Source of the DNA: Akkermansia muciniphila
GTDB lineage: Bacteria; Verrucomicrobiota; Verrucomicrobiia; Verrucomicrobiales; Akkermansiaceae
Direction of reading: 5' to 3'
Assembly: GCA_945901795.1 (NCBI GenBank)
Contig: CAMDLP010000023.1
Location: forward strand, 1-46,175
DNA: 46,175 bases
Shown here piece after piece: positions 26,089 through 33,580 of the stretch. Under the pieces are notes generated by a model. That model did no database searches. It was not told the DNA's origin and saw nothing but the letters and a program-made list of their open reading frames with translations. Position numbers and translations under genes: made by a program. Positions within the stretch are counted from its first letter, which is position 1. Each line of letters begins with the position of its first letter.

Positions 26089-26307
26089 GACCGTGCAAAC
26101 CTGGGATCGGATGGTTTTGTTTCATCCATCGGCCAGGAAATTTCTTTTTGCGGCTCGGACCGGCATGCGGGAGCGGGCGTTTGCGAATCGTGAACCCGTT
26201 TCTTGGTGGCGGTTGATAGACCGCGGACTGAAGTCCCCGACGACTTTTAAAAAATCCCGCTTGCGATGGATGGCGCGGTGGCGAGAATTTCCCCAGATTT
26301 GATCTCC

Positions 26308-27078
26308 ATGACAAAATTCCGCCCGTGCATCGACCTCCACCAAGGACAGGTGAAACAAATCGTCGGCGGCAGCTTGCGCGACGACGGCGCGGGGCCGACG
26401 GAGAATTTCGTGTCGGACCGGCCGGCGGGTTGGTTCGCGGAGACTTTCCGCGACGACGGGCTAACGGGCGGGCATGTGATCAAGCTCGGGCTCGGAAATG
26501 ACGCGGCGGCGCGCGAGGCGCTGGCGGCTTGGCCCGCCGGTTTGCAAATCGGCGGCGGAATCCACGAGCGCAATGCGGCGGAGTGGCTGGACGCCGGCGC
26601 GAGCCATGTGATCGTGACTTCCGCGCTGTTTGACGCGGCGGGGAAATTTCTGGAAGAGACGTTGCGCTCGTTGGTCGAAAAAATCGGCCGCGAAAAACTG
26701 GTCATCGACCTTTCCTGCCGCCGGACCGCGGCGGGCTGGACGGTGGCGATGAACCGTTGGCAAACGCTGACCGACCTGACGGTGGATCACGCCACTCTCG
26801 ACCGACTCGCGCCGTTTTGTGACGAGTTCCTGATCCACGCGGCGGACGTGGAGGGCTTGTGCGGCGGAATCGACGCGGAATTGGTCGCGCTGCTCGGTAG
26901 CTGGGGAAAACGCCCGGTGACCTACGCGGGCGGCGCGGCGACGATGGCGGATCTGTTACTCGTGGAGCAGGCCGGGCGCGGTTCGGTGGACGTGACGGTG
27001 GGCAGCGCGCTGGATCTTTTCGGCGGCAAGGGACTACGTTACAAGGACTTGGTCGCCTGGAACCGGCGCGAGGCATGA
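26308..27078 (+). CDS. hisA: Phosphoribosylformimino-AICAR isomerase, eukaryotic-type HisA
   Basis: Histidine pathway isomerase (ProFAR to PRFAR). Start at MTKFRPCIDLHQGQVKQIVG; a longer frame from 26266 adds unlike sequence. The chain follows yeast HIS6 closely: FVSDRPAGWFAETF, GGHVIKLGLGNDAAAREAL, LQIGGGIHERNAAEWL, VIDLSCRR-WTVAMNRWQTLTDL, FLIHAADVEGLCGGID and the tail LDLFGGKGLRYKDLVAWN. This is the separate eukaryotic/TIGR02129-type branch rather than the usual bacterial HisA. 256 residues. No other his gene is nearby. Its last 78 bases plus 14 downstream bases recur at 32402-32492. Confidence 0.9.
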   Translation: MTKFRPCIDLHQGQVKQIVGGSLRDDGAGPTENFVSDRPAGWFAETFRDDGLTGGHVIKLGLGNDAAAREALAAWPAGLQIGGGIHERNAAEWLDAGASHVIVTSALFDAAGKFLEETLRSLVEKIGREKLVIDLSCRRTAAGWTVAMNRWQTLTDLTVDHATLDRLAPFCDEFLIHAADVEGLCGGIDAELVALLGSWGKRPVTYAGGAATMADLLLVEQAGRGSVDVTVGSALDLFGGKGLRYKDLVAWNRREA

Positions 27079-27092
27079 GTTTGCGGGAAAGC
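27002..27092 (+). repeat. Direct repeat, copy 1 (3' end of hisA)
   Basis: 91 bases covering codons for GSALDLFGGKGLRYKDLVAW, NRREA, the TGA and 14 bases after it. 86 of 91 bases match 32402-32492. The five differences are all third-position transitions that keep the amino acid. The two copies bracket the 5.3-kb accessory unit. Confidence 0.95.
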
Positions 27093-27856
27093 CTGAGAAA
27101 GTTGTTAGCTCCGATCTTGGAAAGAGATGCACAGAGGGCTGCGGGCGATCCATCAGAAATAAATGTTACGTTGCGGGAACCGACCCCGGAAACAAGCCGG
27201 AGCGAGGACATCACTTGACGCCGTTAGCGCCCGGAGGTGGCCGCGCGAGCCGCCGATGTGGACGACACGAAAGACGTTCCCGAAGCGCAATTCCCAGAGC
27301 CTCGCGACGGGAATCTTGTGGGGCCGGAGGCATGGTGTGAGGCACGAAACACGATGCCGCAGGCCGAGGCGCGGAGCATCTTCGCGGCGGGGGGTGGGCG
27401 GCGAGCCGGGAGGCGGTGAAGCGGAGCGGAACCGGGGGGGCGGGCACCGCCTCCCGGCTGGCCGTGCGGCGTGAGGTGGCCGGAGGATGCGAGTGATAAC
27501 GAGCCTAACTTGCGGCTGGCGCGGGAGCTGCACAGGCCGGAGGGCACTTGTGACTGCGACGGGTAATGCTGCCGAGGGTATTCCCCGAGGGAACATCCGG
27601 GGAGGGAGGGGCCCGCTTGCGGGAGGCACCCGGACCGAGATGCAGCATTACCCCGCGCACGTCACATGTTCCCGCAGGACCAGCAGCTCACGTGATCAGC
27701 CGCCAGCGGGATGTCTCGCGGTGCGGAGCGACGATCTTTTGGGAGTTTTGCCAGTGGCCCGGAGAAAGATTATCCTAACATGTTAATCCGCGAGGCCTGA
27801 CCCGATTCATGACCCAATTCATTATGTTTCCTCAAATCATGACGCGGGCAGTATAG
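27093..27856. other. Highly structured gene-free stretch, candidate RNA or mobile palindromes
   Basis: No confident gene in 764 bases. Two long stems stand out: 27404-27418 with 27445-27459 (15 perfect base pairs, AGCCGGGAGGCGGTG) around a 26-base loop, and 27546-27572 with 27642-27669 (12 perfect pairs GGGTAATGCTGC plus an imperfect extension) around a 69-base loop. That loop itself folds (CCCGC-TT-GCGGG). The open frames here (for example 27163-27474) have Arg/Gly/Pro-rich products of random type. It may be a structured RNA, a MITE-like pair of palindromes, or the 3' region of the accessory operon. Confidence 0.45.
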
Positions 27857-28888
27857 CTACGCGCGACGTTTCAAGGCAAGCGCGACGATCACAAGCAACA
27901 CGAGTATTCCAACAAGCCACGGCCAGACCGCCGACTCGCGCTCAACCGGAACAGCGGGAGTTTGTGCAATGGGCGTTGTTGGCACTGGCGAAGCGGTCGG
28001 TGCTGCAGCATGCACGGATGTCGGCGGAGGGTTAGACACGCCCGGCACTGATGCGGGATTGATTGGCCGTAGCGCCACGCTTTTGGGAGCCGCTACCTTC
28101 TGTGTCGCAACCTGCAAATCAGGAGTCTGCCACGGCGGGTATTTCTCCAAAAGGGACTTTGCCAAGAGTTGCAGTATCCACGAAGAGTTGGCGATCCATT
28201 GGCGAAGCTTCCGCTCTCGATCAGCGTTATTCATCGCTGGTCCTGCTGCCGGTTCCCATGGCGCAATCTCGTTGCCTTGGATCTGCCTCGCCTGACCAAG
28301 CTCAGCGCGCAGCATTGCTCGCTCAGTCTCGGGAAGTTCAATGTTTTCCACGAACCATGAGGCGGCATCGAGCGGTGATCGCTGGAAGAGATAAATGATC
28401 AGTCGGCTTTGTGTTACACCCGCTCCTTCCTCCAATGCACGGCGATAGACAGAAAAGTCCCGGCGTCCTTCAGCATTCGGCGTTTGCACGACCTCAATGT
28501 CGATGAGAAGCCTTTCCGCTGTGGCTTCAATTTCGGGTTCACGAGATGCGAACAACCGACTAAACGCTTGCGCCTTTTCCTCCCGCGTGGTGGCGCTCGC
28601 ACCGATAAGAAAACGGGCTGCCTCCGCCGTGCGCTCCCGATCGGCGGACTGAACTTGAGAAGCGATTCCCATGGCAAGCGCGCTCAAAAACTCAATGCGT
28701 TCGGGTGGAGGCAAAGACGCAACCTGTGCCTGCACGTCTTTTTGCAACTGTAGCCATGCAGCGTCAGTCTGCGCAGCCTTGGCTCTTGTTAAGGCCGCTT
28801 GTGCGAATGATGCGCCCTCCGCCGCCCCAACGGACAACGGCGCCATATACAGAAGTAACACTGCGAGGATGGCTGCGATCGCTTTCAT
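27857..28888 (-). CDS. Exported protein with C-terminal membrane anchor, unknown function
   Basis: Start at MKAIAAILAVLLLYMAPLSVG (28888), a signal peptide; the longer frame to 28966 would overlap the preceding gene. Mature part about residues 25-260 is helical and charged (DAAWLQLQKDVQAQVASLPP, ERTAEAARFLIGASATTREE), resembling helical-repeat folds. A Pro/Ala/Thr/Val-rich linker (SVHAAAPTASPVPTTPIAQT) leads to a C-terminal helix VWPWLVGILVLLVIVALALK and RRA. Topology would be a periplasmic domain tethered by its C-terminus. Third gene of the accessory operon, 13 bp after the hydrolase gene. I do not recognise the family. Confidence 0.7.
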   Translation of the reverse strand: MKAIAAILAVLLLYMAPLSVGAAEGASFAQAALTRAKAAQTDAAWLQLQKDVQAQVASLPPPERIEFLSALAMGIASQVQSADRERTAEAARFLIGASATTREEKAQAFSRLFASREPEIEATAERLLIDIEVVQTPNAEGRRDFSVYRRALEEGAGVTQSRLIIYLFQRSPLDAASWFVENIELPETERAMLRAELGQARQIQGNEIAPWEPAAGPAMNNADRERKLRQWIANSSWILQLLAKSLLEKYPPWQTPDLQVATQKVAAPKSVALRPINPASVPGVSNPPPTSVHAAAPTASPVPTTPIAQTPAVPVERESAVWPWLVGILVLLVIVALALKRRA

Positions 28889-28901
28889 TCTTCTATATGT
28901 T

Positions 28902-31178
28902 TCAAGGCGCAACATGAGTCTTGATGGCTGAGTGTAGGTCTTTCTGCACCGTTGGATCTGAGTCAATCGAGGTGTGGCCGAGCGAGCTTCCCCAAGTCGT
29001 GGTATTCACATCGAGATTCACCGCAGCTCCGGTAACAGCATTGCTCCTTATCGAAAGATGTCTCTGGTAATAATTCCAGTGGTAAAGCGAACTAGGCGGG
29101 TATCGGGTTTCCGCAGCCGGATCGAACGTGCCGCCGTCGTGTTGAATGGCATCCATATACCCGGTGAAGTTTATCCCGAAGCTTCCCAAGCTCGACCGAG
29201 TGTCATTCAGTTTCTTGGATATGTCGTGCGTTGCCCCGCCGCCGTGGCTGTGACCGAACATTCCGATGTCCCGCACGAAGCATTGCCAAATTTGGAAACC
29301 GGCCTCTCGGGATGCGGGATCGCCCGATGTGGTGTTGATTCCGTTAACGTCATAGTAAGCAACATTGTAACCCTCCAGATAGAGCTTCTGGCAGACACTA
29401 AACATCCCGTTTCCGTTAGAGCTGCCCGAGTAGAAGGTTTCACCAGATAGGCCAACGATCAGTTCCTTGTAAGTGATGAACTTGAGCTTGCCTGCGGTGC
29501 CAATGACGTTGGTGCCGGACTTGAGTTGCCATTCCAATTCGCCTTCCCCCTGGTCAATTGCTTCTACCCAAATGGTTTTCGCACCTTGAGCATTCAACGT
29601 CAGTTCCTTCTCATCCTCGTTCTTGAGGATTGCGGTGCCCTTTTCCTTCGCTTCCCACGTGCGCAGTTTCGAGTTGCTTCGCTTAAGGAACACTTTGATG
29701 CCCGTCATTCCAGCGAGCCCCGGACAAGAGAACTCCACTTTGATCAGGTCGTTTTCTCCGCTCACTGAGTCCTCGTCAGCATCGGACTTATAGGGACTGT
29801 CGTAGTCGTCATTATCTCGGTTCACGCGGATTCTCACACCGGGATTCAACTCCTCAGCGTCTGGGATAACTAACTTGGTCTGGTCGCTTGGCCGCAAGTC
29901 AACAGACTGCTGCACCATCTCAGGCCGGTAAGCCTTTATCTCCACAGGCAGGAGGCCAACAGCGACAAGGCTTGGAAGTGTCTCATCTGAAAAGTTTGTG
30001 GCACCGACCTCAACTTGAATGGTGAGATCCGAGTCTGGCGGTGCCGTGAGACCACGGACTTGCTCAATGTGGACCGGACTTGGCAACCCCGGTAGCGTGG
30101 TGCCATCGACAACATCGATTTCCCACTCCGAGTGGCGTTCGTTCACGTTGATGGAGCCATTGATGGAATCGCCTTGAGAGGGAATCACATGCCATTCCAG
30201 AAGATCGTTGAATCCAGACTGAACCCCTGTCCAATACGGGAACTCTTCACTGGCAATGGCGACGGATAGAAGTGCGCTTTGACCGGCGGGAATAGTCAAA
30301 GTCCCGGTCCGAGTGATTTTCTCCTGCGCTGCGCCGTTGCCATGAACGGTGATCCACCGGCGGGAGCCTGATGCGTCCGCGCTGACGGGATTTGTGCCGC
30401 TTTGCAACTCCTCAAGCGTGCTGGCACCATCGCTGTCAGGGTCGGCATTCGGGTCGACTGTGGACAAACCTCCGTTCGGCGGGTTTTCTCCGAAATTCAA
30501 GGCCAGCCAGAGATCCGGAACGCCTGGTATTGTGTCGGCAAGCAAGGGATTCAGCCCCAAAGCCAATTCCTCCGCATTCGTGACGCCGTCGCCGCCGGTA
30601 TCTATATCTCCGACGGCGACGCGCCAGAAGAGCTTGTCGGGGGTGCTGCCGTTCTCCTGAGTGAGCGGAATGCCATATTCGGTGATGCTGCCGTTGCCGT
30701 TGTAGGGCGCTTCGACGGGCTGCCAGCTTCCCTCGGAAAGGTCGGGTGAGTAGTGCAAGGTGTATTGTTTGCCGGGAAGCGTGGGCCAGGTGAGGGTGAC
30801 GGCCTCGGGGGTGAGGATTTCCGGGTCGCCGCTTGCTCCGGTGATGTAGGTGGCGGGGATATGGACGATGTCCGGGCGGATGATGCCGTCGGGCGGATTG
30901 GGATCGAAGGGGTTGGTGCCGGCGGCGGCTTCATGGGTGTTCGTCCAGCCGTCGCCGTCGGGATCGGCCTGGGGAACGAGGTTGGGTAGGAGATTGCCGT
31001 TGTTGAAGTGCTTTTCCCAAATGTCGCTGACGGTGTTATTGTTAGTATCAACGATGGCGGGGGCGGGAAGAGATGTAAGAATCCAGAAGCCAGAGACAAG
31101 GAGGAGGAAGACGGAGCAGGATGCTCCGGTCACGGTCTGGCGCGATACGCGCCAGCTACGCTTCAGGGAGGTGCTCAT
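28902..31178 (-). CDS. Secreted Ca-repeat protein with C-terminal alpha/beta hydrolase domain
   Basis: 758 residues. A hydrophobic segment near residues 22-41 is the export signal. It is followed by thrombospondin-type-3-like Ca-binding repeats: DTNNNTVSDIWEKHF, ADPDGDGWTNTHEAAAGTNP, DTGGDGVTNAEELALGLNPL and DPDSDGASTLEELQSGTNP. A long beta-rich middle follows. The C-terminal part has the nucleophile elbow G-H-S644-H-G-G and a likely catalytic His735 (LGHTSIDSDP), so a lipase/esterase-type serine hydrolase is likely. The acid residue is not clear. Its ATG overlaps the upstream stop by four bases. The fusion of Ca repeats to a hydrolase suggests a surface or secreted enzyme. Confidence 0.75.
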   Translation of the reverse strand: MSTSLKRSWRVSRQTVTGASCSVFLLLVSGFWILTSLPAPAIVDTNNNTVSDIWEKHFNNGNLLPNLVPQADPDGDGWTNTHEAAAGTNPFDPNPPDGIIRPDIVHIPATYITGASGDPEILTPEAVTLTWPTLPGKQYTLHYSPDLSEGSWQPVEAPYNGNGSITEYGIPLTQENGSTPDKLFWRVAVGDIDTGGDGVTNAEELALGLNPLLADTIPGVPDLWLALNFGENPPNGGLSTVDPNADPDSDGASTLEELQSGTNPVSADASGSRRWITVHGNGAAQEKITRTGTLTIPAGQSALLSVAIASEEFPYWTGVQSGFNDLLEWHVIPSQGDSINGSINVNERHSEWEIDVVDGTTLPGLPSPVHIEQVRGLTAPPDSDLTIQVEVGATNFSDETLPSLVAVGLLPVEIKAYRPEMVQQSVDLRPSDQTKLVIPDAEELNPGVRIRVNRDNDDYDSPYKSDADEDSVSGENDLIKVEFSCPGLAGMTGIKVFLKRSNSKLRTWEAKEKGTAILKNEDEKELTLNAQGAKTIWVEAIDQGEGELEWQLKSGTNVIGTAGKLKFITYKELIVGLSGETFYSGSSNGNGMFSVCQKLYLEGYNVAYYDVNGINTTSGDPASREAGFQIWQCFVRDIGMFGHSHGGGATHDISKKLNDTRSSLGSFGINFTGYMDAIQHDGGTFDPAAETRYPPSSLYHWNYYQRHLSIRSNAVTGAAVNLDVNTTTWGSSLGHTSIDSDPTVQKDLHSAIKTHVAP

Positions 31179-32044
31179 CGTGCGACTCCTTTCTCGGCGG
31201 CGGGTTTTTCTGTGCGCCAGTAGTTGAGGATGATGTCTTTGGGTTTGGGCGGGTTGGCTTTTAGCTCGGCTTCATGTTCCCGTTGGGCGCGCTCGCGGCC
31301 TTCGCAGGCTGTTTTGAGACGGTCGTATTCGCTGTTATATAGATCATGGAGGGACTGGATGGAGGCGAGGGTTTGCTTGCCGGGATTTCCAGAGACAATG
31401 TGGAAAGTGGCTTTTCCTGCGGGAAAATCAGGGATTTGTGGGCTTTCCGGGCCAAGTTCGTTTTGGAGGGCGGTTCTCGTTTCGATTTCGGAAACGCCCC
31501 ACATGAGGAACAAGCTGCGGGTTCCTCCATCGGAGCCGATGAAGTTTCCAATGCCGGAAATCAGTGCGAAATCGGCGGATGACCAGAAGACGACGGGTTC
31601 GCCTCTGCCCTGCGGCCAGGTGTGGACGAGCGACAACGGCCGCGAATCCTTCGGGCGGAAAACGCTGGCTCCGGCGCAGAGGAATTCGTCGGCGGGATGT
31701 TCTTCACGGGCTTCAGCGATTCGTTCTTGGATGGCCGGGTCGTTGATGTCGAGCGGCGGGGCGACCTGCGGGGGCGGGGGGAGCGGGATGAGGTTGATTT
31801 TCCTAACGGTGATGGTGCGCCCGCCCTGCTGGTGGGTGGTGGTTTCGAGGATATCTTTTGCCGGGACGATGAACTTGGGTTTCGGCGACTCGGGAGGTGG
31901 CGGGGTGCCGTCGGGGATTTCGCCGAGGATGCGGGCGGTGGTGGAAGTTACCGGAGAGTCGGTAGTCGGCTTATCCTGTGCGTGGACGAGCACCGTGGTC
32001 GCCAAGGCGGCGAGAAGCGCGAGGGGAATTGGGATTGGTTTCAT
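31175..32044 (-). CDS. Exported proline-rich protein, unknown function
   Basis: 289 residues from the ATG at 32044; the minus frame stays open to 33283 but that part is antisense to pdhA. Signal peptide MKPIPIPLALLAALATTVLVHAQ, then a Pro/Thr-rich region (IPDGTPPPPESPKPK, LIPLPPPPQVAPPLDINDP) and a globular part with FLMWGVSEIETRTALQNELG. The C-terminus is charged and ends KPAAEKGVAR. First gene of the three-gene operon; four-base ATGA overlap with the hydrolase gene shows coupling. Family not recognised. The proline-rich region may span an envelope layer. Confidence 0.7.
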   Translation of the reverse strand: MKPIPIPLALLAALATTVLVHAQDKPTTDSPVTSTTARILGEIPDGTPPPPESPKPKFIVPAKDILETTTHQQGGRTITVRKINLIPLPPPPQVAPPLDINDPAIQERIAEAREEHPADEFLCAGASVFRPKDSRPLSLVHTWPQGRGEPVVFWSSADFALISGIGNFIGSDGGTRSLFLMWGVSEIETRTALQNELGPESPQIPDFPAGKATFHIVSGNPGKQTLASIQSLHDLYNSEYDRLKTACEGRERAQREHEAELKANPPKPKDIILNYWRTEKPAAEKGVAR

Positions 32045-32401
32045 GAGGAAGGTCGGGTTGGAATCGTCCTTCCTGGTGGACGGGGAGTTAGAAAGCTGGC
32101 AATAGTCAGCTGCAACGGCCTTTAGCCCCCTCCGAAAAGACGGCCTAGACATGCGCCGCCGCCTCCCCGGCCGTTTGGTCGGTTTGGCGGCATCGTTGCG
32201 GTCGATGCCGACCGCTATTGCTTGGATTTCTAAATCCCTGTCCGCCGAAGCGAGCAAATATGAAGAGGGGCAATCTCCAGCAGGATGGCAAGGACGAATT
32301 CCAGGAATTCGACAAATCCACGGATGAATTACGTCCGCTCCCCCAGGTGGAACTCTCCCGACGTTTAGAATAAAGTTCAGCCAGTCCGGCAGGCAAATCT
32401 C
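32045..32401. other. Upstream region of the accessory operon
   Basis: No gene seen. It should carry the minus-strand promoter for the three-gene operon. A short perfect palindrome CGAATTCCAGGAATTCG is visible near 32301-32317. The region ends exactly where the hisA-derived direct repeat begins. Confidence 0.35.
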
Positions 32402-32492
32402 GCAGCGCGCTGGATCTTTTCGGCGGCAAGGGGCTGCGTTACAAAGACTTGGTCGCTTGGAACCGACGCGAGGCATGAGTTTGCGGGAAAGC
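32402..32492 (+). pseudogene. hisA 3'-end fragment, direct repeat copy 2
   Basis: Same orientation and extent as 27002-27092, including the stop codon and 14 bases after it; 86 of 91 identical. It encodes ALDLFGGKGLRYKDLVAW and NRREA without a gene in front. All five differences are synonymous (GGA/GGG, CTA/CTG, AAG/AAA, GCC/GCT, CGG/CGA), as if both copies diverged while under coding constraint. Ends 38 bases before pdhA. Confidence 0.93.
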
Positions 32493-32530: not shown

Positions 32531-33580
32531 GTGCCGCACTTGGATATGCAATCTTTCGCCGACGGGGTGGTGATGAACCGCGATTTCCTGCGGTCGGTGT
32601 TTCAGTCGATGCTCCGCGCGAGGATTTTGGAAAACAAGCTTTCGAGCCTCTACAAGGCCGGGAAAATCGTCGGCGGCGTCTATCTCGGCCGCGGCCAGGA
32701 AGCGGTCAGCGCGACGCTCGGCACCGCCTTGATCCAAGGCACGGATTTCTTCGCCCCGCTGATCCGCGACCAAGCGGGACGCACCGCTTTCGGCGAGCCG
32801 ATGCTCGACTGCACGAGGACTTATCTCGGCTCGGTCGAGGGTCCGATGCGCGGGCGGGACGGCAACATCCACCGCGGGCGGCCGGGTATGGGCATGCCGG
32901 CGATGATTTCCCACCTTGGCGCGCAGGTCCCGGTGATCGCCGGAATGCTGTTTGCAAAACGCCTGCAAGGCACGCTGGCTGGACGCGTCGGCGCGACCTG
33001 CATCGGCGACGGCGCGACTTCGACCGGCGCGTTTCACGAAGGCTTGAATCTGGCAGCCGTCGAGCGCCTGCCGATGGTGATCGTCGTGGGAAACAACCAG
33101 TTCGCCTACTCGACGCCGAACCACCGCCAGTTCGCTTGCGCGGATCTGGTGGAAAAAGCCCGCGGCTACGGCATCGGCGGGTTCTCGGTGGATGGCACGG
33201 ATTTGCTGGCCTGCACGTCGGTGATCGGCGAGGCCGTCCGGCGGGCGCGCGAGGGCGGCGGGCCGCAAATGGTCGTCGCGCATTTGCTGCGTCTATCCGG
33301 CCACGGCGAGCATGACGACGGCTCCTACGTGCCGGCGGAAATCCGCGGTGGTCACTACGGCCGCGACTGCGTCGAGGTGGCGATGCGCCAGTTGGTGGAA
33401 AACAACCTCGCCACCGTGGACGAAATCCTCGTCTGGCAGGACCAGTTCGCCGACGAGGTCCAGCGCGCCGTGGCCCAGGCCCAACAGGAAGCGGTGCCCG
33501 ATCCCTATCACGAAGACTGGACCGCGCTTTCCACCCGTTTCCCCCTGACCGAGTCAGTTTCCCAGCCATTTTTATCGTGA
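32531..33580 (+). CDS. pdhA: Pyruvate (2-oxoacid) dehydrogenase E1 alpha
   Basis: TPP-dependent decarboxylase subunit. Thiamine motif GDGATSTGAFHEGLNLAAV ending in NNQFAYST; GGVYLGRGQEAVSATLG and GRDGNIHRGRPGMGMPAMIS are typical E1-alpha blocks. 349 residues from a GTG at 32531; an ATG at 32546 (MQSFADGVV) is an equally good start. Branched-chain or acetoin substrates cannot be excluded from sequence, but linkage to rex favours pyruvate. Stop overlaps the next GTG by four bases. Confidence 0.88.
   Translation: MPHLDMQSFADGVVMNRDFLRSVFQSMLRARILENKLSSLYKAGKIVGGVYLGRGQEAVSATLGTALIQGTDFFAPLIRDQAGRTAFGEPMLDCTRTYLGSVEGPMRGRDGNIHRGRPGMGMPAMISHLGAQVPVIAGMLFAKRLQGTLAGRVGATCIGDGATSTGAFHEGLNLAAVERLPMVIVVGNNQFAYSTPNHRQFACADLVEKARGYGIGGFSVDGTDLLACTSVIGEAVRRAREGGGPQMVVAHLLRLSGHGEHDDGSYVPAEIRGGHYGRDCVEVAMRQLVENNLATVDEILVWQDQFADEVQRAVAQAQQEAVPDPYHEDWTALSTRFPLTESVSQPFLS

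What the first reader, a model, noticed from the sequence alone, without database searches (positions are those of the whole stretch)
27002..32492. 5.4-kb accessory unit bracketed by 91-bp copies of the hisA 3' end
The two direct copies (27002-27092, 32402-32492) match at 86 of 91 bases, include the stop codon and 14 bases beyond it, and then diverge sharply. All five differences are synonymous third-position transitions. Elements that insert at the 3' end of a conserved gene and restore it leave exactly this picture (attL/attR), but no integrase is visible between the copies. Alternatives are a tandem duplication with loss of the second hisA body, or import of the unit from a relative with its own hisA. 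Recombination between the copies would excise the unit and leave hisA whole.
Basis: partly seen in the sequence, partly recalled or inferred. Interest (0 to 1): 0.75.

Follow-up and report, generated by a model that had tools for sequence, protein, structure and literature searches.

The report
Mobile toxin operon parked behind hisA
A likely bacterium-versus-bacterium toxin operon has been inserted next to a histidine-synthesis gene, leaving a copied gene end on both sides, and it begins with a folded RNA missing from the RNA-family catalogue that also precedes DNA-defence genes in related bacteria.

Summary
The repeat is real: 27002-27092 and 32402-32492, 86 of 91 identical, all five differences third-position transitions. 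Of 80 hisA loci from other species, 20 have pdhA in reach; in 16 it follows hisA directly, so the empty site is probably ancestral. A second species, G004, has the same right junction, a second hisA end and different cargo. The unit looks like a polymorphic toxin-immunity module: accessory gene, secreted TSP3 effector with a rare C-terminus, membrane-anchored immunity candidate. The module family recurs in the genus; a phage-like contig carries two modules, one beside a tyrosine integrase. Best reading: site-specific insertion at the hisA 3' end, integrase since lost; recombination without an integrase is the main rival. Unexpectedly, 18 nt before the first gene (32063-32229, minus strand) lies a pseudoknotted RNA with strong covariation and no Rfam match above threshold, present in 38 of 73 genus genomes. 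Sampled copies precede toxin modules, other secreted proteins and type III methyltransferases. Its function is untested.

The parts
26266..27078 (+). hisA (270-aa ORF; the real start is probably about 12-14 codons further in, where homology to most relatives begins)
   Evidence: PF00977 E 5e-26; matched residues
27002..27092 (+). left copy of the hisA 3' end (attL-like), part of intact hisA
27093..27856 (.). GC-rich spacer with no gene recognised; parts of 27671-27764 resemble short repeats on three other contigs of the genome
27857..28915 (-). immunity candidate (orf369 counted from an upstream TTG): hydrophobic N-terminus, body without known relatives, C-terminal TM segment and basic tail; start codon uncertain
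   Evidence: no family match of note; similar layout in other modules
28902..31178 (-). secreted effector, 758 aa: hydrophobic start, TSP3 repeat, shared N-terminus, rare C-terminal domain with GHSHGG (GxSxG-like, recalled motif)
   Evidence: PF18884; N-terminus shared; C-terminal domain in 2 of 244 family genomes including its own
31175..32044 (-). orf289, accessory protein with hydrophobic N-terminus, overlaps the effector gene by 4 bp
   Evidence: match in 39 of 73 genus genomes
32063..32229 (-). structured leader RNA with pseudoknot, 18 nt before the orf289 ATG
32402..32492 (+). right copy of the hisA 3' end (attR-like), joined to the native hisA-pdhA spacer
32531..33580 (+). pdhA, native downstream neighbour of hisA
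   Evidence: PF00676 E 3e-53

Best explanation
The 5.3-kb unit is an interbacterial polymorphic toxin-immunity module that arrived as cargo of an integrative element (temperate phage or similar). The element inserted by site-specific recombination at the 3' end of hisA, using about 77 bp of gene end plus 14 bp as its attachment site, so hisA stayed whole and a second gene end was left before pdhA. The integrase and backbone have since been lost (or acted in trans), leaving an att-bounded cassette. Its operon runs leader RNA, accessory secreted protein, TSP3 effector with exchangeable C-terminal domain, then immunity protein; the leader probably controls translation. Shown: the repeat, the empty sites, the occupied second species with different cargo, the module family, the phage-borne copies, the RNA structure. 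Inferred: integrase action, toxicity, immunity, RNA regulation.
For: hisA directly followed by pdhA in 16 of 20 relatives with pdhA in reach; G003 reads TGAGTTTGCGGGAAAGC|GGTTGCAGG and G070 nearly so. G004 has the same right junction, a second hisA end and different cargo. Differences of the two right-hand copies from G003 hisA (5 and 4) are all at codon position 3, as expected of fragments taken from working hisA genes. The module family is multicopy (9 orf289 matches in G026); one large protein of it ends in PT-HINT plus an AHH nuclease. A phage-like IMG/VR contig carries leader, accessory gene, 1441-aa effector, ankyrin gene and then a tyrosine integrase, and a second module near its other end. 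Modules in G058, G017, G052 and G024 lie within about 8 kb of weak homologues of that contig's HTH or g149 genes; the G058 module lies about 1.7 kb from a phage-type DNA polymerase. G010 separately holds an orphan 116-bp hisA 3' end.
Against: No integrase on the window contig or on either G004 contig (C74, C119) by PF00589. Of 35 other module loci with sequence on both sides, none has a comparable flanking duplication; weak matches between flanks were as common on the reverse-strand control (7 versus 7 loci; best 32 bp, L205). In 76 hisA loci tested no other second hisA end was found. Two hisA-end patterns gave 0 hits in viral contigs and only chance-size matches in the phage stretch L340. The G004 unit is split over two contigs, so its continuity is inferred. 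The left junctions of G000 and G004 differ. The two copies within G004 differ at six coding bases, one of them at codon position 2, that change being in the left, intact gene. The G010 orphan adjoins a truncated gene and its differences are not third-position biased, so it may reflect another process.
Confidence: 0.57

Rival explanations
1. The module came in by homologous or homology-assisted illegitimate recombination (uptake of DNA from a relative already carrying hisA-module), without any integrase; the second hisA end marks an illegitimate join.
For: No integrase in the unit. The right copies look like ends of working hisA alleles. Divergence between G000 and G004 rises from 84.5% DNA identity in 32045-32401 to 64% protein identity in orf289 and no detected similarity in the effector beyond its N-terminal part, so cargo seems to be exchanged by recombination.
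Against: Needs a donor in which the module already sat behind hisA, so it does not explain the first insertion. The clean 91-bp core ending against the native spacer is what site-specific insertion predicts.
Confidence: 0.27
2. Transposition or break repair with an unusually long target duplication.
For: The duplication is direct and flanks the insert on both sides. The own genome holds a decayed module copy at another site (L217) and repeats near the left end (a RAYT-like label would be recalled, not tested).
Against: 91 bp is far longer than usual target duplications (recalled). No transposase among the three cargo ORFs. The right copies' differences from G003 are all third-position, unlike neutral decay.
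Confidence: 0.08
3. Tandem duplication of hisA followed by loss of most of the second copy.
For: The right copy is a hisA end in the correct orientation.
Against: No second hisA piece in the 76 loci tested; direct hisA-pdhA neighbours in 16 of 20; the unit's genes belong to a dispersed module family.
Confidence: 0.04
4. Assembly artefact joining two strains.
For: The window is one of 120 contigs, presumably of a metagenome assembly.
Against: G004, a separate genome, has the same right junction and a second hisA end.
Confidence: 0.02

Closest known systems
Polymorphic toxin systems (Zhang et al. 2012, PMC3482391; abstract start and 12 passages seen)
   Same: Large secreted proteins with exchangeable C-terminal domains, LamG adhesion domains, HINT and AHH domains in a relative, adjacent immunity genes including ankyrin proteins; the passages list many such families in Verrucomicrobia
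   Different: N-terminal TSP3 chassis with an upstream accessory gene (orf289 family) and, in many copies, a shared structured leader; 'TSP3' has 0 occurrences in the first 300,000 characters of that paper, which are all that is held
Integrative elements and temperate phages using the 3' end of a protein-coding gene (for example phage 21 and e14 at icd; recalled, nothing read)
   Same: Gene end duplicated, gene restored, synonymous differences between copies, empty sites in relatives
   Different: No integrase in the unit; hisA as a target was not seen in the one search made (23 papers hold the three terms, 15 listed, titles and abstract starts seen; in the first of them the six 'hisA' passages are a vector name)
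Cis-regulatory structured RNAs (riboswitch-like leaders)
   Same: Conserved pseudoknotted fold a short distance before start codons; possible hairpin masking a purine-rich stretch before the start codon
   Different: No Rfam 15 family at E<=1 except a sub-threshold sRNA-Xcc1 match in the window (26.4 bits, cut-off 53), not seen in four other loci with the leader; genes behind it are conflict genes and secreted proteins, not a metabolic pathway

Membership tests
Polymorphic toxin system | conserved N-terminal part with variable C-terminal domains | tested here: met
   N-terminus 58-71% identical between G000 and G004 with no similarity detected beyond it; C-terminal domain in 2 of 244 family genomes including its own
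Polymorphic toxin system | recognisable C-terminal toxin domain | tested here: inconclusive
   The window protein has only a GxSxG-like motif (recalled), no Pfam domain there, no solved relative, and a useless fold model at pLDDT 32; a relative has PT-HINT plus AHH
Polymorphic toxin system | immunity gene directly downstream, matched to the toxin | tested here: inconclusive
   In 23 modules with a next ORF (the window included; ORF picked by length), 18 have a hydrophobic N-terminus, 11 a C-terminal TM segment, 10 both, by a crude score; the only C-domain relative (G466) is followed by a protein of like length and layout but without sequence similarity; no activity tested
Site-specific integrative element | att duplication that restores the target gene | tested here: met
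Site-specific integrative element | unoccupied site in relatives | tested here: met
   16 of 20 with pdhA in reach; in 60 of the 80 loci pdhA was not in reach
Site-specific integrative element | own integrase | tested here: not met
   none among the cargo ORFs; 7 PF00589 matches in the genome, all on other contigs
Site-specific integrative element | free or attP form | tested here: inconclusive
   two hisA-end patterns, 0 hits in viral contigs; patterns allow only exact matches
Structured cis-regulatory RNA | conserved secondary structure with covariation | tested here: met
   A1: 98.7% of cells paired, five measures above all 500 shuffles; pseudoknot absent from the model yet 417 of 448 cells paired in 64 other copies; pseudoknot alone beats all shuffles on three of five measures
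Structured cis-regulatory RNA | lies just before genes | tested here: met
   46 of 75 copies with enough DNA have an ORF of at least 100 aa starting within 50 nt (random positions 1138 of 3857), 43 with ATG (random 429 of 3849); 29 have none
Structured cis-regulatory RNA | changes expression, binds a ligand or protein | not testable with these tools
   needs experiment
Integron cassette (attC) | cassette array with integron integrase | not tested
   IntI was not searched for

The most novel reading that the evidence does not exclude
A new class of pseudoknotted 5' leader RNA, about 170 nt and spread patchily through one bacterial family and its order, governs mobile conflict genes of two unrelated kinds, polymorphic toxins and type III restriction-modification methyltransferases. 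It would be a shared riboregulator of attack and defence that travels with the genes, also on phages, and whose modules settle at chromosomal sites such as the hisA 3' end.
Probability: 0.45. Interest if true: 0.78.

Novelty: new variant of a known kind. Interest (0 to 1): 0.62.

Why it matters
The locus shows a captured toxin-immunity type module with a clear footprint (a duplicated working gene end) and empty sites in sister species, so gain, exchange and loss of interbacterial weapons can be followed at one place in an uncultured Akkermansiaceae lineage. The leader RNA makes it directly testable whether toxins and restriction systems share one RNA-level switch, which would be unusual, since known shared leaders mark metabolic or ion regulons (recalled).

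Tried and rejected
Tandem duplication and assembly error were considered and are disfavoured. The expectation that other module copies would also carry duplicated gene ends was not met. A plasmid home for the unit's DNA and a sequenced-phage home for orf289 gave no match; peptide-pattern scans of viral contigs found no relative, but a leader pattern found one phage-like contig. A second leader pattern found nothing. The sRNA-Xcc1 match led to an integron idea that did not hold in related leaders. A fold of the effector C-terminus was worthless. Immunity homology between G466 and the window failed. The left-end repeats were not resolved. A first fold of the window's leader end was cut too short and showed nothing (z 0.87); the longer stretch was folded.

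Full report
Observation. The two copies at 27002-27092 and 32402-32492 are real: 86 of 91 bases agree, the five differences are transitions at third codon positions, and the match includes the stop codon and 14 further bases. They are the only matches in the 3.28-Mb genome.

Occupied and empty sites. I fetched 80 hisA loci from other species. pdhA is in reach in 20; in 16 of these 55-64 bases separate the last aligned hisA codon from pdhA, and in the other four the gap is larger. In the remaining 60 pdhA is not in reach, either because the contig ends or because the order differs. The two nearest empty genomes, G003 and G070, read hisA, about 14-16 bases, then the spacer that in the window follows the right copy. 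So absence is probably ancestral and the unit was gained. A search of 73 genomes of the genus found hisA 3' ends apart from the main gene in three: the window, G004 and G010. In G004 the hisA contig runs into other DNA just after hisA, and another contig holds a second hisA end before pdhA with the same cargo-side boundary as in the window. The two contigs are not joined in the assembly. In G010 a 116-bp hisA end (103 of 116 identical to its own hisA, last 48 bases identical) lies beside a truncated phosphodiesterase-like gene (gene name by eye). No further second hisA end was found in the 76 of 80 loci that could be tested, within at most 8 kb.

History of the right copy. Compared with the empty-site hisA of G003, the window's right copy differs at 5 and the G004 right copy at 4 of the coding bases, all at third positions. 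If positions were equally free, five of five has probability 0.004. Two of the G004 changes alter an amino acid (K to N, E to D), to residues also present at that place in HisA of other relatives (read from the sequences). This suggests that each right copy was taken from, or kept level with, working hisA genes, as for attachment sites or for exchange with empty-site strains. The two copies within G004 differ at six bases, one at a second position, and the G010 orphan shows no third-position bias.

What the cargo is. Three genes run towards hisA. The first (orf289) and the large second gene overlap by four bases. The pair recurs: orf289 matches in 39 of 73 genomes, up to 9 in one; the effector N-terminus in 57 of 73, though weak hits there may reflect TSP3 repeats. 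Between window and G004 the orf289 proteins are 64% identical and the effector N-termini 58-71%, with no similarity detected beyond; the third genes show none. Twelve large proteins of other modules were scanned: most carry TSP3, LamG or Ig-like domains, and one ends in PT-HINT plus an AHH nuclease. The window C-terminal domain has one weak relative among 244 family genomes. In 23 modules with a next ORF (window included), 18 have a hydrophobic N-terminus, 11 a C-terminal membrane segment and 10 both, by a crude hydropathy score, the layout of orf369. These are marks of polymorphic toxin systems (PMC3482391; abstract start and passages seen). Toxicity and immunity are inferred. The own genome also holds a decayed module on contig 6.

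Mobility. The unit's DNA matched no plasmid record and orf289 no sequenced phage. A leader pattern hit one IMG/VR contig, a 51-kb phage-like record with primase, clamp loader, ParB-like and minor tail families. It carries leader, accessory gene, a 1441-aa effector, an ankyrin gene and then a tyrosine integrase, plus a second, different module near its other end. Weak homologues of its HTH or g149 genes lie within about 8 kb of modules in G058, G017, G052 and G024, and the G058 module lies about 1.7 kb from a phage-type DNA polymerase. So such modules do travel on integrating elements. But the hisA unit itself has no integrase, no hisA end was found in L340 or by two patterns in viral contigs, and 35 other module loci with sequence on both sides show no comparable flanking duplication. 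I therefore put site-specific integration at 0.57, and do not file the unit as an intact integrative element.

The leader RNA. Directly before orf289 (32063-32229, minus strand) lies a stretch conserved in 15 loci, 14 of them 9-29 nt before an orf289-family start; the L234 copy points the other way (a decayed and a short match were left out). With a pseudoknot added by eye, 98.7% of cells pair, and all five measures beat every one of 500 shuffles. A model without the pseudoknot found 116 matches in 38 of 73 genus genomes (sum), and matches in 8 of 387 genomes across the phylum, three of the genus, three of the family and two of the order. I took 76 sources and got 79 copies. In the 64 copies not used for the model, 417 of 448 pseudoknot cells pair. 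Over all 79 the pseudoknot covariation score is 0.847 against 0.178 in shuffles, with slid controls at or below 0.144; two of the five measures (pairs with two-sided change, number of pair types) do not exceed the shuffles for this helix alone. The whole structure beats all shuffles on all five, but the alignment was fitted to it. The window leader folds at z -4.2, with a hairpin AGGAAGG/CCUUCCU just before the start codon. Of three relatives folded at that end, two are strong (z -3.4, -3.6) and one weak (z -1.2).

What follows the leader. Of 75 copies with enough DNA, 46 have an ORF of at least 100 aa within 50 nt (random positions 1138 of 3857), 43 of them with ATG (random 429 of 3849). Twenty-nine have none, 14 of these in one genome, G007 (my count). 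By sequence, 18 of 79 precede the orf289 family, the window included. I scanned ten chosen other products: five are type III methyltransferases, one an SNF2 helicase like known defence proteins, two carry TSP3 repeats, two match nothing; two of these six defence-type genes start 61-76 nt behind the leader, the rest 14-43. No Rfam family matched at E<=1 in seven loci, four of them with this leader, and in the window only a sub-threshold sRNA-Xcc1. One paper search on structured RNA in Verrucomicrobia listed three papers, none by title or abstract start on this element. I cannot say that it is unpublished.

Verdict. It holds a module of polymorphic toxin type, of a family that phages carry; the integration mechanism is likely but not shown. 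The strongest new item is the leader RNA, whose structure is well supported and whose role is open.

Noticed in passing
window 32063-32229 (minus); genus-wide copies, e.g. L267, L273, L282: Pseudoknotted leader RNA shared by polymorphic toxin type operons and type III methyltransferase genes, without an Rfam match above threshold.
   Followed up: yes
L300, L302, L303, L305, L307, L308, L310, L311, L313, L317, L325, L234 (all G007): One genome has 14 leader copies, none with an ORF of 100 aa within 50 nt; several share a similar non-coding stretch behind the leader (by eye). Why is unknown.
   Followed up: no
L199, L207, L213, L216 upstream of orf289 homologues: A second, different conserved upstream stretch (with ACTGCTTTTGCGACCA) precedes some modules; possibly another RNA class (by eye).
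   Followed up: no
L340 and L351 (IMGVR_UViG_3300007965_000005): A phage-like contig carries two different toxin modules with similar upstream genes.
   Followed up: partly
window 27671-27764; L002-L004: Short repeated motif on three other contigs, with GGGGTCA-type sequence nearby that recalls RAYT/REP elements (recalled, not tested).
   Followed up: no
L343:7405-7520 (G010): Orphan 116-bp hisA 3' end beside a truncated phosphodiesterase-like gene; a second lineage in which this gene end was copied.
   Followed up: partly
L015, just after hisA: In another species hisA is followed by an RHS-like protein (by eye), a further possible toxin locus at the same place.
   Followed up: no
L217:8163-8774 (own genome, contig 6): Decayed copy of the same module with part of its leader.
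   Followed up: partly
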